Below are positions 1,027 to 17,462 of a stretch of 17,973 nucleotides of DNA, piece after piece (the first letter of the stretch is position 1; each line of letters starts with the position of its first letter). The DNA is from a bacterium (lineage in GTDB: Bacteria; Blakebacterota; Blakebacteria; Blakebacterales; Blakebacteraceae). The DNA lies in NCBI GenBank assembly GCA_025774205.1, contig JALGWK010000018.1, positions 1 through 17,973 on the forward strand, read 5' to 3'. The translations under genes were made by a program, and so were the position numbers. A model generated the notes under the pieces. The model saw nothing but the letters and a program-made list of their open reading frames with translations. It was not told the DNA's origin and made no database searches.

Positions 1027-1959
1027 CTAAGTCGCCTCGGCCGGCTTCTTCTTGCCGGACATGAATTCCGTCTGGAGCAGCGAGAGGACGTTGAAGAGGG
1101 TCCAGTAAAGGATGAGCCCCGCCGGGAACGTCCTGAAGACGAAGAAGAGGACGGCCGGCATCATGAGGGCCATCGGTCGCTGTTTCGGATCTTTCAACTG
1201 TGCCCGCTGCTGGATCAGCATGGAGATCGCCATCAATCCCGGCAGAACCAGATAGGGATCTTTCAGGGAGAGGTCGGTGATCCAGAGCATGAACGGCTCG
1301 CCCCGCAGCTCAATGGTCGTTCTGAAGACGATGAACAGACCCCAGAAGATCGGCATCTGCAGCAGGAGCGGGAAGCAGCCACCCAGTGGGTTGACTTTGT
1401 GCTCCTTGTACAGGTTCATGATCTTCTTGTTCATCTTCTCCTGGTCGTCTTTGTACTTCGCTCGGATCTCCGCCATCTTCGGCGACAGTTCCTGCATGGC
1501 ATGCATACTCTGGTACGATTTCCTGGTAAGCGGGAAGACCACGATCTTCACCAGGATCGAGAAGATGATGATCACGAGTCCATAATTGGGAATAAAGGTG
1601 TGCAGCCAGGTGAAGAGGGTGAGGACCAGCCGGCTGATCGGCTTGATGATGCTGAAGCCGAAGTCCATCATCTTGTCGAGGTCCCGTTCGTAACTGCGCA
1701 GGATCTGATAATCGACTGGCCCCAGGAAGAGATCGGTGCTGATCTCGCCCCCTTCGCCGGCAGGCAGGCGACGGTCGGTGGCAACATTCATGCGGGCCGG
1801 TCCCGCAACCCCGGCGCCGCCGTTCATCTGGGCGCCACGGAAGGGCTCCCCGATGGGCATCATGATAGCCGCGAAGTACTTGACGCGGAGGGAGACCCAG
1901 TCGACCGTGCCGAACGACTGCGCAGTGACACTATCCCGCTTCAGCTTCGTCCGCTCCAC
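1027..1959 (-). CDS. yidC: Membrane insertase YidC, C-terminal part (frame broken from N-terminal part)
   Basis: This frame encodes the end of the periplasmic P1 domain (VKYFAAIMMPIGEP) and the conserved 60KD_IMP insertase core. The core starts at FGFSIIKPISRLVLTLFTWLH, then IPNYGLVIIIFSILVKIVVFPLTRKSYQSM with the conserved positive residues after the first core helix. A basic cytoplasmic hairpin rich in Lys and Glu follows, then NPLGGCFPLLLQMPIFWGL and the final helices ending in a short Lys tail. YidC inserts and folds inner-membrane proteins alone or with SecYEG. As written, the frame can only start at GTG 1959 or within the P1 domain, because a 47-bp duplication at 1947-2040 breaks it from its N-terminal part. 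Removing one copy gives one continuous 585-residue YidC of normal length. Confidence 0.93.
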   Translation of the reverse strand: MERTKLKRDSVTAQSFGTVDWVSLRVKYFAAIMMPIGEPFRGAQMNGGAGVAGPARMNVATDRRLPAGEGGEISTDLFLGPVDYQILRSYERDLDKMMDFGFSIIKPISRLVLTLFTWLHTFIPNYGLVIIIFSILVKIVVFPLTRKSYQSMHAMQELSPKMAEIRAKYKDDQEKMNKKIMNLYKEHKVNPLGGCFPLLLQMPIFWGLFIVFRTTIELRGEPFMLWITDLSLKDPYLVLPGLMAISMLIQQRAQLKDPKQRPMALMMPAVLFFVFRTFPAGLILYWTLFNVLSLLQTEFMSGKKKPAEAT

Positions 1960-2831
1960 ATCTCCGCCCTGGAAGGCGTAGTACCCCGAGTACTCGTCCG
2001 CTCCACATCTCCGCCCTGGAAGGCGTAGTACCCCGAGTACATCAGTTCTTCCCCTCGTTTCTTATCTAATTCCCTTTCTTGCTTATCATGTTCCTGTGGA
2101 TTCGTCGCGTATTCCTGTTGGATAGCCGCGTATTCCTGTTGGGTGGCCTCTGAAAAGGCAAGCCCACCGAGCCACATCAGGCGATAGGAGTCGTTCACCG
2201 GTGAGGTTTCAAAGCCGAAAAAGGTGTCGGTGATGTTAAAGTGGTACGCGCTTCCATAAAAGGTCAGTGTCCGGGTGACACTCCGGGTCTCGTCAATCCG
2301 GGCCGTCAGGGTGATGGTCTTCTGATCACCGGCAGCGATTGTTGTTATATCGGGAGCGACTGTGGTGAATTCCAATGACGAAGCCAGGAGGCGGTTCTGG
2401 CCTTCCATCGGTAATTCCATAACGGCCCCCATCGCGTCATCCGGTATCATCTCCACCGGAGGACTGCCCTCCCGCTCATATCCCTTGAGTGTCCAGCCTC
2501 TGAGGGCAGCACCCAGCAGACCGATCCTGGCAGTAAAGAGGGGGGTATCCACCGTAATACCGTCAAATAATGCCACCGTATCCACGGTGGCAGTTACTTC
2601 GGACTCCAAACGTTCTGGTGCTGACGGCACTGCAGGGACGAACGCCTCCACTCCGCTGGTCGGGGTCGCCTGCTGCTCCTGCGGGCCGGGAGTGACCACA
2701 CCTGGTGTGACCACAAGGGAATCTGAGGCCGCCGGTTCACCCGGAGGATTGATCAGCTTCATATAGGTAGGGGTCAGAAGCAGGATAGCTCCAATTACCA
2801 CCAGGGCGATGATGCTGCGCTTGTCTTCCAT
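1941..2831 (-). CDS. yidC: Membrane insertase YidC, N-terminal part (TM1 and P1 domain, truncated by duplication)
   Basis: The start is ATG at 2831, which shares its A with the yidD stop (TAATG), a coupled junction. Residues 1-25 are a short charged start (MEDKRS) and a signal-anchor helix (IIALVVIGAILLLTPTYMKL), followed by a Pro- and Thr-rich linker and the periplasmic P1 beta-sandwich. The frame then enters the 47-bp duplication, reads GGDVERT and continues into 16 out-of-frame residues before TGA at 1941. The authentic continuation KLKRDSVTAQ is in the other frame. P1 also contains a heptad-like insertion with repeated QQEYA. Because YidC is essential in most bacteria, the break is more likely an artefact than a true null allele. 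Confidence 0.9.
   Translation of the reverse strand: MEDKRSIIALVVIGAILLLTPTYMKLINPPGEPAASDSLVVTPGVVTPGPQEQQATPTSGVEAFVPAVPSAPERLESEVTATVDTVALFDGITVDTPLFTARIGLLGAALRGWTLKGYEREGSPPVEMIPDDAMGAVMELPMEGQNRLLASSLEFTTVAPDITTIAAGDQKTITLTARIDETRSVTRTLTFYGSAYHFNITDTFFGFETSPVNDSYRLMWLGGLAFSEATQQEYAAIQQEYATNPQEHDKQERELDKKRGEELMYSGYYAFQGGDVERTSTRGTTPSRAEMWSGRS
1947..2040. repeat. Perfect 47-bp tandem duplication disrupting yidC
   Basis: 1947-1993 and 1994-2040 are identical over 47 bp, with differing bases immediately outside on both sides, so no flanking microhomology remains. 47 is not a multiple of three, so the duplication shifts the yidC frame. Both copies encode the same P1-domain segment (YSGYYAFQGGDVERT). 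Deleting either copy exactly rejoins the two yidC fragments. Confidence 0.97.
2106..2142. repeat. 21-bp in-frame repeat within yidC P1 domain
   Basis: A 16-bp word, CGCGTATTCCTGTTGG, occurs at 2106-2121 and 2127-2142, a 21-bp period. In the YidC protein this gives consecutive heptads QQEYAAI and QQEYATN, followed by the more diverged PQEHDKQ and ERELDKK. The stretch is highly charged and could form a short coiled coil inserted in P1 just before the strand leading to GGDVERT. Confidence 0.75.
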
Positions 2832-14189: not shown

Positions 14190-14744
14190 ATGCACTACCC
14201 ACGGATGGTAATGACAATCCGGACCGGGACGCTCATCCTGGCAGCCGCGCTCGTCATTCCCATGCATGCCGTGATGGGACATAACGGGGACGGGAAACAT
14301 CTGGTCGAACACCCGGGTGATGATGCCTCCGGTCGGCAGGAGTTCCGCCGGATAGAAGGTAACTATACGGTCGATCGTCACGAGTTCATCGAGGATAACC
14401 TCCTGATCGAACGGGGGAACCTCACCGTCGACGGAGAGATCAAGGGCACCGTGGTGGTAGCCTGGGGGGACGCGATCATCCGCGGGACGGTCGATGGTCT
14501 GCTGGTGGCTGTCCACGGTGACGTGATCGTTCTGGACGAAGGGCTCGTCCAGGGAGACGCGGTCAGTATCGAGGGGAATGTGAATCTCCGGGGCTCGGGT
14601 GTGGTGACGGGAAGCAACGTGACCACCACGCGTGAGACCGCGACTACCGGAGAGAGAACTTCCGCCGCTACGACAATCACGATTTCCTCGAGACCGCCAG
14701 TTTCCCGCTCGGCAGTCTGGTGTACAACCGGGTCGACGGTCTGA
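14190..14744 (+). CDS. Bactofilin-like beta-helix domain: N-terminal part of frameshifted outer-membrane protein
   Basis: The start is ATG 14190, with AAGGAG at 14178-14183 six nt upstream. Residues 1-30 are a signal peptide (MTIRTGTLILAAALVIPMHAVMG in its core, Ala/Gly before the likely cleavage). From about 70 to 145 there is a run of short alternating strands with regular Gly turns (NLTVDGEIKGTVVVAWGD, then AIIRGTVDGLLVAVHGD, then GLVQGDAVSIEGNVNLRG), as in polymer-forming bactofilin domains. Bactofilins are usually cytoplasmic, whereas this one would be exported. After codon 149 (GAG at 14634) the frame becomes low-complexity, while the neighbouring frame takes up a good barrel sequence. 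A single missing base near 14634-14636 explains this, so this is the first part of one gene ending at 15794. The last 36 codons here are out of frame. Confidence 0.7.
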   Translation: MHYPRMVMTIRTGTLILAAALVIPMHAVMGHNGDGKHLVEHPGDDASGRQEFRRIEGNYTVDRHEFIEDNLLIERGNLTVDGEIKGTVVVAWGDAIIRGTVDGLLVAVHGDVIVLDEGLVQGDAVSIEGNVNLRGSGVVTGSNVTTTRETATTGERTSAATTITISSRPPVSRSAVWCTTGSTV

Positions 14745-15649
14745 CCCTCCAGGGGCAGATCTTCAACAACAACTTCGACTGGGACCGCGCCGCCACCAGC
14801 TTCTACGGCGGCGCCGGGTACGGCTTCAAAAGCAAGCGCCTCTACTACCGTCTCGGACTGAATCGGTACTGGCTTCCCCGGACACCGATAGAGATCGGTG
14901 TGGGGGCGTACAAGCAGCTCGAGAGTGAAGACACCTGGTACATGCCGACCAATGAGAACGACTTCCACGCCTTCTTCATCAACTATGACTGGTACGATTA
15001 CTACCAGGTGGAAGGATTCGGCGGGGTGGTCCGGTTCAAACCGCAGCGCTGGGTGTCACTGGGAGCCAGGTATGTCCAGGAGACCGAAACCCCGGTCGTG
15101 AAGACCACCGACTGGGCCCTCTTCGGCGGAGAGAGGGATTTCCGGTCCAACGAATGGCTGACCGGGTGGGACTCCCTCCCGAGCTCGCGGACCTATGCGC
15201 CCGCTGATAAAGGCGACCTGAAACGCTGGATCTACTTCCTGCACGTTGATGTGACGTCCTGGGGACGGAGCCGGCCCGGACGGGGTCTGGTTCTCGACGC
15301 GTCACTGGAGCAGGTCGAACACCAGTCCGATGCCGCGGGAACCTTCAACTACGAACGGTTCCAGGCGGAGCTGAAGGCCTATCTGAGCCTGAGCCGGATC
15401 GACCATCTCGCTCTCAGGGTGCGGGTCGGTTCAACGAAGACCGATGCCGGCTTCGAGACCATGGTACCGGTCCAGCACCGCTACTACCTGGGTGGTGTGG
15501 GCAGCCTTCGCGGATACGAGTTCAAGCAGTTCACCGGCAACCGGTTCTTCCTGGCCACCGCCGAGTATACCCTCGGCCCTGGCGCTGACGGTCTTCTTCG
15601 ATTACGGCCTGGCCTGGGACGCCGATCCGACGACGGATCTGTACGATGA
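14636..15649 (+). CDS. Omp85/D15-type outer-membrane beta-barrel: middle part of frameshifted gene
   Basis: This frame is open from 14636; its first possible start is GTG 14720, but family-like sequence begins earlier (RDYRERNFRRYDNHDF, then SFPLGSLVYNRVDGLTL), so it continues the preceding bactofilin-like frame. The body alternates aromatic and polar residues as barrel strands do, with long acidic loops. Near the end it reads RYYLGGVGSLRGYEF and FTGNRFFLATAEYTL, the LGG-x-x-SLRGY motif typical of the surface-antigen/Omp85 barrel. No POTRA domain precedes it; the beta-helix takes that place. The frame is lost again at about 15572-15582; the last 23 codons are out of frame. Function is unknown: an assembly, secretion or envelope-anchoring role are all possible. 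Confidence 0.72.
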   Translation, partial: DRDYRRENFRRYDNHDFLETASFPLGSLVYNRVDGLTLQGQIFNNNFDWDRAATSFYGGAGYGFKSKRLYYRLGLNRYWLPRTPIEIGVGAYKQLESEDTWYMPTNENDFHAFFINYDWYDYYQVEGFGGVVRFKPQRWVSLGARYVQETETPVVKTTDWALFGGERDFRSNEWLTGWDSLPSSRTYAPADKGDLKRWIYFLHVDVTSWGRSRPGRGLVLDASLEQVEHQSDAAGTFNYERFQAELKAYLSLSRIDHLALRVRVGSTKTDAGFETMVPVQHRYYLGGVGSLRGYEFKQFTGNRFFLATAEYTLGPGADGLLRLRPGLGRRSDDGSVR

Positions 15650-15794
15650 ACTCTATCCCGATGAGGGGAAACGAGCTGTAGGTGTAGCTCTCTCCCCCTT
15701 CGGCTGGGATGGATTCAGATTCGAGATCGCGCGACCGCTCGATGCTGAAGAGAAAGAGTTCACCTATTACGTCCGTCTGGAATTCGACTTCTAG
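15582..15794 (+). CDS. C-terminal strands of the frameshifted outer-membrane barrel
   Basis: This frame has no start codon of its own that makes sense; it resumes the barrel with ALTVFFDYGLAWDADP, the last-strand motif that normally follows the SLRGY region, then a loop, GVALSPFGWDGFRFEIARPL, and the closing strand YYVRLEFDF ending in Phe, the usual signal for BAM recognition. Deleting one base near T15580 would fuse it to the preceding frame as EYTLGPALTVFF. The complete gene would be about 534 codons. Confidence 0.7.
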   Translation, partial: ALTVFFDYGLAWDADPTTDLYDELYPDEGKRAVGVALSPFGWDGFRFEIARPLDAEEKEFTYYVRLEFDF

Positions 15795-15858
15795 TGTCGA
15801 GTGACAGGACACTTGTGCGCCGGCGACAATACCGACTAACACACCGGCAAGGAATATG

Positions 15859-16734
15859 ATGATGACGAAGAACGAGAAACAGGCCCTGAAGACCATCGGG
15901 CTCACCCTCTTCTTCCTCATGATGGCGACAACGCTGCTCTTCGCCGCTGTCCAGGAGAAGGTGATCTCGAAGACGTTCACTCCCGACCGATCGCGCCCGC
16001 TCCTGGTCAAGGTGCGGGGAGACGGGGCGGAAGTACACCTGTCAGCTGTCGAGCGAGGCCGGGAGGGACGGGCCCGCTACCGGTACAACGAGGACCACTT
16101 TTCGGGCACCATGGAGTGGGACTCTGAACAGAACCGGTTCGAGACCGTCCTTGATATGGAAGGCATCGACTTCAACACCGACGACGAGGGCTCCGACTCG
16201 GAACTGGGTGTGATGCTGCCCGGCGGCGTACCGATCGATCTCGATTTCTCCCTCAAGGCGGGGGTACTCGACCTTGACGGTGACGGGCTCGAGTTCAATG
16301 GTCTTGAACTCTACCTGTGGGCGGGAGAGCTGACAGCAAACTTTCCGACCCCGTCCCGGCGCGTCATCAGACGGGCCAACATTGACGTGAAGATGGGCGA
16401 GACCCGGCTCGAGAATCTGGGCAATCTTGCTATCGAGGTTCTCGATGTGAATGGTTTCGCGGGTGCCTGCTATATTGACCTGACCGGGTCGGTGGAGATG
16501 GAACGCCAGGTCAGGGTGGATATGGAGATGGGAGAGATAGAGGTCGTCGTTCCGAAGGGCGCGACGGTGGAGGCCAGGATCTCGAAGCTGGGATTCCTGG
16601 CGAAAGTGGATCTGCCCCGCGGCTGGGAGAAGGATGGTCGTTATGCCTACTCGCCGGGAGCACGCCGCGGCGAGGCAGATATCAGACTGGACATTCGTGG
16701 CGGGATAGGTCAGATAACGATCGTGGAGAAGTGA
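15859..16734 (+). CDS. Secreted toast_rack/DUF2154-like protein
   Basis: About 291 residues. An N-terminal signal or anchor helix (IGLTLFFLMMATTLLFAA) precedes a beta-rich body. The central repeating pattern VPIDLDFSLKAGVLDLDGDG, then LELYLWAGELTANFPTPS, then NIDVKMGETRLENLG, and near the end VDMEMGEIEVVVPKG, is typical of the DUF2154 toast_rack fold shared with the C-terminal domain of LiaF/YvqF, a membrane-stress regulator. Three ATG codons occur in a row (15856, 15859, 15862); AAGGA at 15849-15853 fits the second or third best. It follows the barrel gene by 64 nt. Placement on the outer face of the inner membrane and a link to envelope stress are inferred. Confidence 0.75.
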   Translation: MMTKNEKQALKTIGLTLFFLMMATTLLFAAVQEKVISKTFTPDRSRPLLVKVRGDGAEVHLSAVERGREGRARYRYNEDHFSGTMEWDSEQNRFETVLDMEGIDFNTDDEGSDSELGVMLPGGVPIDLDFSLKAGVLDLDGDGLEFNGLELYLWAGELTANFPTPSRRVIRRANIDVKMGETRLENLGNLAIEVLDVNGFAGACYIDLTGSVEMERQVRVDMEMGEIEVVVPKGATVEARISKLGFLAKVDLPRGWEKDGRYAYSPGARRGEADIRLDIRGGIGQITIVEK

Positions 16735-16778
16735 TGTAATCCTACCTGACAGGGCACTAGACGCATGTGGGGAGTCGA

Positions 16779-17462
16779 GTGACGCGAATCTGTCTACATA
16801 TTCTGATCGCCGGCATGCTGGCACCGGTGGCGGTCTCCGCCCAGGGCGAAGAGACCACTGTCGAGGTGCCCGCGGTGTGGCTCATGGAGAACGATCTCCT
16901 CTGCTCGGTGGTCGCGAATAACCTGCTCGACGAGAGCGCCCGGGAGACCATCCGGGACGGCGGCACGGCTGCGGTCGATTACACCTTCGAGCTCTACCGC
17001 AACCGCCGCGGATGGTTCGACTCCCTGATCGAGAGCCGGGACCTGCAGTTGCGTATCAGTTATGACGCTTTCGAGCGCCAGTACCGCCTCATCAGCCCCG
17101 ATCTGCGCCTCAAGACCGAAGATTTCACGAAAGTCGTCACGCAATGCACGTCGCTCAGCGAGGTTTCGTTCGGAACCATGGACCAACTCCGCCTCGATCC
17201 GCAGGCCACCTACTATATCGTCGTGCGCGTCCGCTACCAGCCGATGTCGGTTGAGACGATCGATGATCTCCGGGACTGGGTAAGTGGCTCAGGGCGGGAC
17301 GAGGAGCAGCGGAACAGCAAGAACCGGGGGGAGGGTTTCGGATCACGGATCGCTCGGGTCCTGATGAGCGCCGCCGGATTCGGCGAAGAGGATCTCCAGG
17401 GAGAGAGCGAGCGGTTCCGCCCCTCCGAACTCGACGTCCGCGTACCCCCGGAGAGTGAGTGA
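16779..17462 (+). CDS. Secreted DUF4390 domain protein
   Basis: About 227 residues. A signal peptide (ICLHILIAGMLAPVAVSAQG) precedes a domain reading EVPAVWLMENDLLCSVVANN, then YTFELYRNRRGWFDSLIESR, LQLRISYDAFERQYRLI and TYYIVVRVRYQPMSVETIDD, and a W after it. This matches my memory of DUF4390, a periplasmic domain of unknown function typically encoded just before an NtrY-like sensor kinase. Starts are GTG 16779 (GGGGAG 4 nt upstream) or GTG 16767; the first gives a cleaner signal peptide. The C-terminal 50 residues are charged and poorly conserved. The stop overlaps the next start (TGATG), so the pair is probably coupled. Confidence 0.72.
   Translation: MTRICLHILIAGMLAPVAVSAQGEETTVEVPAVWLMENDLLCSVVANNLLDESARETIRDGGTAAVDYTFELYRNRRGWFDSLIESRDLQLRISYDAFERQYRLISPDLRLKTEDFTKVVTQCTSLSEVSFGTMDQLRLDPQATYYIVVRVRYQPMSVETIDDLRDWVSGSGRDEEQRNSKNRGEGFGSRIARVLMSAAGFGEEDLQGESERFRPSELDVRVPPESE

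What the first reader, a model, noticed from the sequence alone, without database searches (positions are those of the whole stretch)
14190..15794. Bactofilin-like beta-helix fused to an Omp85-type outer-membrane barrel
After repair of two single-base frame breaks, the gene reads signal peptide, about 75 residues of bactofilin-like repeats, then an Omp85/D15-type barrel with an LGGVGSLRGY motif and a terminal Phe. Omp85 proteins normally carry POTRA domains in the periplasm; a polymer-forming beta-helix in that place would be an unusual architecture. It could give a self-assembling periplasmic collar or anchor for an outer-membrane channel. The domain calls are from reading; the combination and its role are inference.
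Basis: partly seen in the sequence, partly recalled or inferred. Interest (0 to 1): 0.7.

Follow-up and report, generated by a model that had tools for sequence, protein, structure and literature searches.

The report
Bactofilin-fold domain on Omp85 outer-membrane barrel
In several little-studied bacterial phyla an outer-membrane channel protein of the family that builds outer membranes carries, in place of its usual periplasmic docking domains, a small helix-shaped domain with the fold of a bacterial cytoskeleton protein, and it often sits beside a gene for one particular exported partner.

Summary
The domain reading holds; the frame reading does not. The window (oriC region of a MAG contig, G000) carries a damaged copy of a gene that is one intact ORF in a congener (L038) and in at least 20 other genomes: signal peptide, bactofilin-fold beta-helix, linker, 16-strand Omp85 barrel, no POTRA. 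The window's own helix models at pLDDT about 97; among solved structures its best matches are the two bactofilins (Z 13.7 and 11.8). The congener's barrel matches BamA/TamA/Sam50 (Z 20-23). The "single-base" breaks are stretches of 103 and 29 nt absent relative to the congener. Coding parts on both sides are under purifying selection, and the contig has other frame-breaking irregularities (an exact 47-nt duplication in yidC), so assembly error is likelier than decay. Relatives span KSB1, Calditrichota, Zixibacteria and Bacteroidota-labelled MAGs; some have up to three helix modules, some have lost the helix. An exported Toastrack (LiaF-like) gene lies next door in the window and in five to six GTDB families. 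Most likely role: an accessory outer-membrane assembly or translocation factor whose helix docks that partner. Polymerisation ("collar") is untested, and the known bactofilin interface Phe is absent in all 24 members. Apparently undescribed: a new variant of a known kind.

The parts
14190..14279 (+). Sec-type signal peptide region of the fusion protein (hydrophobic core TLILAAALVIPMHA)
   Evidence: read in translation; the intact relatives begin the same way, many with an AxA-like site
14334..14633 (+). bactofilin-fold beta-helix; one coil (17 aa) longer than in relatives of other phyla
   Evidence: AF2 of the window's own sequence, pLDDT about 97; VIA-align Z 13.7 to bactofilin 6rib and 11.8 to BacA 2n3d; 17-residue insertion in A5
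14633..14634 (+). first frame break: 103 nt of the linker absent relative to the intact congener
   Evidence: DNA alignment with L038
14634..14717 (+). remainder of the helix-to-barrel linker, frame of 14192
14718..15575 (+). Omp85 barrel, first part, including the L6 motif LGGVGSLRGY
   Evidence: Pfam Omp85 E 8e-11; congener barrel Z 20-23 to BamA/TamA/Sam50; dN 0.095, dS 1.25 against L038
15575..15576 (+). second frame break: 29 nt absent relative to the congener
15576..15794 (+). C-terminal strands of the barrel with F-x-D-x-G (FFDYG) and terminal Phe, frame of 14190
   Evidence: model positions 466-543; dN 0.077, dS 0.87
15856..16734 (+). adjacent exported Toastrack / LiaF-like_C protein, proposed partner
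   Evidence: Pfam LiaF-like_C E 1e-3; orthologues beside the fusion in other families
16767..17462 (+). DUF4390 protein, next gene of the probable operon
   Evidence: Pfam E 3.5e-13; same order in L038 and L039
17455..17973 (+). N-terminal part of the next gene, a HAMP histidine kinase in L039; carries a third gap (92 nt after 17622)

Best explanation
The gene encodes an outer-membrane protein of the Omp85 superfamily in which the periplasmic POTRA module is replaced by a bactofilin-fold right-handed beta-helix. Shown by sequence and prediction: signal peptide, 5-6 coil helix, flexible linker, 15-16 strand barrel with the two Omp85 signature motifs, no detectable POTRA, conservation in several candidate phyla, and linkage to one Toastrack-family gene. 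Inferred: the barrel sits in the outer membrane with the helix in the periplasm, and acts as an accessory insertase or translocase. Inferred: the helix is the docking or stacking surface for the neighbouring exported Toastrack protein (itself a beta-helix fold), so the pair works as an outer-membrane assembly or maintenance module; in the window's family it is apparently co-transcribed with a two-component system. The copy in this contig is broken by missing stretches, most likely assembly errors. Confidence is about 0.93 for the architecture and about 0.4 for the mechanism.
For: Intact single-ORF homologues with the same domain order; helix plus barrel in one ORF in at least 22 of 386 sampled genomes, about 19 GTDB families (my count from the rows; 41 of 68 barrels carry the helix by HMM). 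Pfam Omp85 22/24, Bactofilin 17/24. AF2 of the congener: helix pLDDT over 90, 15-16 barrel strands; barrel Z 20-23 to BamA, TamA, Sam50. AF2 of the window's own helix and top matches to both bactofilins. Partner gene: one copy in nearly every genome that has it, adjacent in G000-G004, G200, G195, G053 and G192; 15 of the 20 genomes with it also have the fusion or its orthologue. Operon order barrel-Toastrack-DUF4390-HAMP kinase-response regulator. Purifying selection on both sides of both breaks.
Against: No experiment. Helix-less relatives exist (L059, L064, L099), and L099's barrel still neighbours the partner, so the helix is not indispensable for that association. The partner is unlinked or absent in many genomes with the fusion. 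The partner profile was built from neighbours, so the co-occurrence figure leans towards the hypothesis and ignores phylogeny. Nothing computed shows a helix-partner contact.
Confidence: 0.45

Rival explanations
1. Structural scaffold: the periplasmic helices stack end to end like bactofilins and tether many barrels into a collar or fence.
For: Bactofilin fold with Z above the other rows; helix modules gained in whole coils and in tandem, up to three per protein in KSB1; bactofilins polymerise through interfaces of this helix domain (PMC12448750).
Against: The Phe of the BacA C-terminal polymerisation interface (F130) is V, I or L in all 24 members; one end is tied to a linker that may cap it; the helix is lost in several relatives.
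Confidence: 0.15
2. Two-partner-secretion-like pair: the barrel exports the Toastrack beta-helix protein to the cell surface.
For: One adjacent exported beta-helix-type gene, as TpsB/TpsA pairs have; conserved linkage in 5-6 families.
Against: No POTRA domains; the partner is small (about 290 aa) with no recognised TPS secretion domain; it is often unlinked; Toastrack domains are usually described as intracellular (PMC11237479).
Confidence: 0.2
3. The gene in this genome is a real pseudogene decaying by deletions.
For: Two gaps that are not multiples of three in one gene.
Against: Purifying selection in every segment, dN/dS about 0.08-0.17; comparable irregularities in yidC and the next kinase gene of the same contig; intact copy in the congener.
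Confidence: 0.12

Closest known systems
Omp85/TpsB superfamily (BamA, TamA, Sam50, FhaC)
   Same: 15-16 strand barrel, L6 RGY motif, F-x-D-x-G motif, Z 20-23 to solved members
   Different: no POTRA found; bactofilin-fold helix instead
Non-POTRA or extra-domain Omp85 subfamilies of Heinz & Lithgow 2014 (WD40, Metallo, noNterm, patatin) and PlpD
   Same: the Omp85 barrel carries other N-terminal domains; PlpD's extra domain was shown to stay in the periplasm (PMC4104836; PMC11116518)
   Different: none of the subfamilies described in the section read has a bactofilin-like helix
Bactofilins (BacA 2n3d, Thermus bactofilin 6rib)
   Same: beta-helix fold over 89 residues, 22-24% identity, Z 11.8-13.7
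   Different: exported, fused to an outer-membrane barrel, interface Phe absent; this genome has a separate stand-alone bactofilin too
DUF5686 proteins of Bacteroidota/Ignavibacteria
   Same: barrel half aligns (E 4e-7, below Pfam's cut-off) and shares the D..YY region
   Different: DUF5686 relatives here begin with a carboxypeptidase-regulatory-like domain by reading (L026, L068); separate branch in the tree
Lia/PSP Toastrack systems (LiaF, LiaG, VraT)
   Same: the neighbour gene belongs to the Toastrack/LiaF-like_C group; a two-component system lies near it in the window's family (PMC11237479)
   Different: here it has an export signal by reading and pairs with an outer-membrane barrel in diderms

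Membership tests
Omp85 superfamily | 16-strand Omp85-type barrel at the C-terminus | tested here: met
   Pfam Omp85 22/24 members; AF2 strands, 15-16; VIA-align Z 20-23
Omp85 superfamily | L6 (V/L)RG(F/Y) motif and F-x-D-x-G motif | tested here: met
   SLRGY in the frame of 14192 and FFDYG in the C-terminal piece; R lost in a few distant members (L058, L062, L065)
[quoted passage not shown]
   no POTRA family among Pfam hits of 24 members at E <= 0.05; the region before the barrel is helix plus low-confidence linker
Bactofilin | beta-helix core of about 90 residues with the bactofilin fold | tested here: met
Bactofilin | sequence above Pfam PF04519 gathering score | tested here: inconclusive
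   window helix 16.3 bits against 27.9; relatives up to E 2e-13
Bactofilin | conserved Phe in the C-terminal polymerisation interface (F130 of BacA) | tested here: not met
   V/I/L in 24 of 24; the stand-alone bactofilin of the congener has L there too
Bactofilin | cytoplasmic, nucleotide-independent polymer | not testable with these tools
   the signal peptide argues against a cytoplasmic site; polymerisation needs experiment
DUF5686 family | full-length match above the gathering score | tested here: not met
   congener 29.4 bits against 39.2, barrel part only
Two-partner secretion (TpsB) | TpsB barrel with POTRA domains and a TpsA with secretion domain | tested here: not met
   no POTRA; ShlB only as weak hits; partner is Toastrack

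The most novel reading that the evidence does not exclude
An extracytoplasmic bactofilin system: the helix domains polymerise in the periplasm and organise arrays of Omp85 barrels (with the Toastrack beta-helix as a co-assembling subunit), so that outer-membrane assembly sites are positioned by a periplasmic cytoskeleton.
Probability: 0.1. Interest if true: 0.88.

Novelty: new variant of a known kind. Interest (0 to 1): 0.58.

Why it matters
POTRA domains are treated as the working handle of Omp85 machines. A widespread subfamily that has a bactofilin fold in their place, often with a linked exported partner, suggests that the barrel can be driven or positioned by another kind of module. It gives a concrete system for asking what the periplasmic domain of an Omp85 protein must do. 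It also extends the bactofilin fold to an exported, membrane-tethered setting.

Tried and rejected
Single-base frameshifts or programmed frameshifting: rejected, because 103 and 29 nt are missing relative to the congener. Missing linker on another contig of the MAG: not found. Contig-end or chimera artefact as the source of the fusion: rejected, since the same order is intact in many independent assemblies. Foldseek alone on the helix gave no match at E <= 0.001; the VIA-align second look did. A phylum-wide count was impossible, because the phylum of the chosen centre holds one genome. Literature: no held paper mentions both Omp85 and bactofilin, none DUF5686; the held library is open-access only. 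The first dN/dS run had wrong frames for the barrel and C-terminus; one search replaces it for those. The hypergeometric P of 5e-17 for fusion/partner co-occurrence is not corrected for phylogeny or for profile bias and is not used as proof.

Full report
WHAT IS IN THE WINDOW. The window is a whole contig (G000:C515, 17,973 nt) of a metagenome-assembled genome of 3.09 Mb in 527 contigs, 86% complete. By reading of the ORFs and by Pfam where checked, it is an origin region: rsmG, yidC and rnpA on the minus strand, then dnaA, dnaN, recF, a dciA-like ORF, gyrB, gyrA and rex, followed by the gene in question (14190-15794), a Toastrack/LiaF-like gene, a DUF4390 gene and the start of a histidine kinase.

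THE FRAME BREAKS. The congener G001 (L003/L038, JALGVQ010000106.1) has one intact ORF of 601 codons with the same neighbours. Aligned with it, the window lacks 103 nt after 14633 and 29 nt after 15575, and a further 92 nt after 17622 in the kinase gene. So the breaks are not single bases, and the first removes most of the helix-to-barrel linker. Segments on both sides of both breaks are under purifying selection: dN/dS about 0.17 for the N-terminus and helix, 0.08 for the barrel and 0.09 for the C-terminus. The same contig carries an exact 47-nt tandem duplication that breaks yidC (1947-2040) and another near-exact 47-nt repeat at 869-980. yidC being essential (established knowledge), and the same period occurring twice, point to assembly error (inference). 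Raw reads would settle it.

THE PARTS. Barrel: the window's middle piece hits Pfam Omp85 at E 8e-11. The congener model (mean pLDDT 75) has a 15-16 strand barrel at residues 204-571 and matches Sam50, BamA and TamA at Z 20-23. The L6 motif (SLRGY) and the F-x-D-x-G motif are present. Helix: folded alone from the window's own sequence it has pLDDT about 97 from residue 20 onward. Foldseek alone gave nothing significant, but the second-look aligner put the two solved bactofilins first: 6rib Z 13.7, rmsd 2.5 over 89 residues, 24% identity; 2n3d Z 11.8, rmsd 2.0 over 89, 22%; the next row is 10.0 with poor rmsd. Pfam Bactofilin is weak for the window (E 0.011) but hits 22 of 24 helix segments. No POTRA family is among the hits.

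DISTRIBUTION. A scan of species genomes gave 32 loci, mostly labelled KSB1, Calditrichota, Zixibacteria, Latescibacterota, Bacteroidetes or unclassified; most are helix plus barrel. In a domain-wide sample of 386 genomes at least 22 genomes in about 19 GTDB families have both in one ORF (counted from the match ranges; most of them confirmed by HMM). In a tree of 68 barrels the helix is clustered but needs 12 changes on the quick tree (the careful tree was not finished), at least 4 forced by well supported branches. Two of the helix-less rows (L040, L103) are only truncations, so this overcounts. Helix-less close relatives (L059, L064, L099) and replacement by a carbohydrate-binding module (L067) suggest that the N-terminal module is swapped or lost. 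Other members have two or three helix modules in tandem (L043, L049, L050, L053, L115). The window's lineage has exactly one extra 17-residue coil.

THE PARTNER. The next gene downstream encodes an apparently exported protein of the Toastrack group (LiaF-like_C in 14 of 19 collected neighbours, DUF4097 in 9). A profile of 13 such neighbours finds 20 of 386 genomes, one copy in nearly all; 15 of them also have the fusion or its orthologue. It is adjacent in G000-G004, G200, G195 and G053, also beside the helix-less barrel of G192, and the two genes lie at contig ends in G047. In G011, G055, G076, G217, G298 and G334 it is present but not adjacent. In the window's family the run continues DUF4390, HAMP histidine kinase, response regulator. 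PSP/Lia work links Toastrack domains with two-component systems and envelope stress, mostly as intracellular domains (PMC11237479); here the protein has an export signal by reading.

HOW IT MOST LIKELY WORKS. Shown: architecture, conservation, linkage. Inferred: a periplasmic helix and outer-membrane barrel, acting as an accessory insertase or translocase; the helix offering a docking or stacking edge for the exported Toastrack protein. Heinz and Lithgow define the superfamily by its barrel and propose assembly or translocation roles for odd architectures by default (PMC4104836); PlpD shows that an extra N-terminal domain can remain periplasmic (PMC11116518). The collar model remains open but weak: the Phe of the BacA C-terminal interface, whose replacement abolishes polymerisation (PMC12448750), is V/I/L in all 24 members. 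The congener's stand-alone bactofilin also has Leu there, so this is not decisive.

NOVELTY. No held paper mentions Omp85 and bactofilin together, and the Omp85 subfamilies described in the 2014 survey do not include this one. The library is open-access only, and domain databases list architectures I could not query, so 'undescribed' is provisional. I file it as a new variant of a known kind.

Noticed in passing
window 1947-2040 and 869-980: Two tandem duplications with the same period of 47 nt, one exact and breaking the frame of yidC; the shared period suggests a k-mer assembly artefact.
   Followed up: partly
window 17622: A 92-nt stretch is absent relative to the congener in the kinase gene downstream, breaking its frame as well.
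   Followed up: partly
L042 1607-1993: A genuine stand-alone bactofilin gene (Pfam E 5e-26) lies directly upstream of a helix-barrel fusion, same strand.
   Followed up: no
L067 2880-4754 and L110: Related barrels preceded by another domain: in L067 (Eisenbacteria) a carbohydrate-binding module (AMPK1_CBM/CBM48) with a DUF4390 gene next door, as in the window's operon; L110 has a different N-terminal region by reading.
   Followed up: partly
L043, L049, L050, L053, L115: Two or three bactofilin-like helix modules in tandem before the barrel.
   Followed up: partly
L038 protein residues 275-300 and 336-348: The most invariant residues of the family (W, EN, D..DY; W.LFGG, FR.N) fall in what strand counting suggests are extracellular loops L3 and L4 of the barrel, not in the helix; their role is unexplained.
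   Followed up: no
G000:C473 (L002) and L026: The window's genome and a genome of the same family carry DUF5686-like proteins with a related barrel.
   Followed up: no
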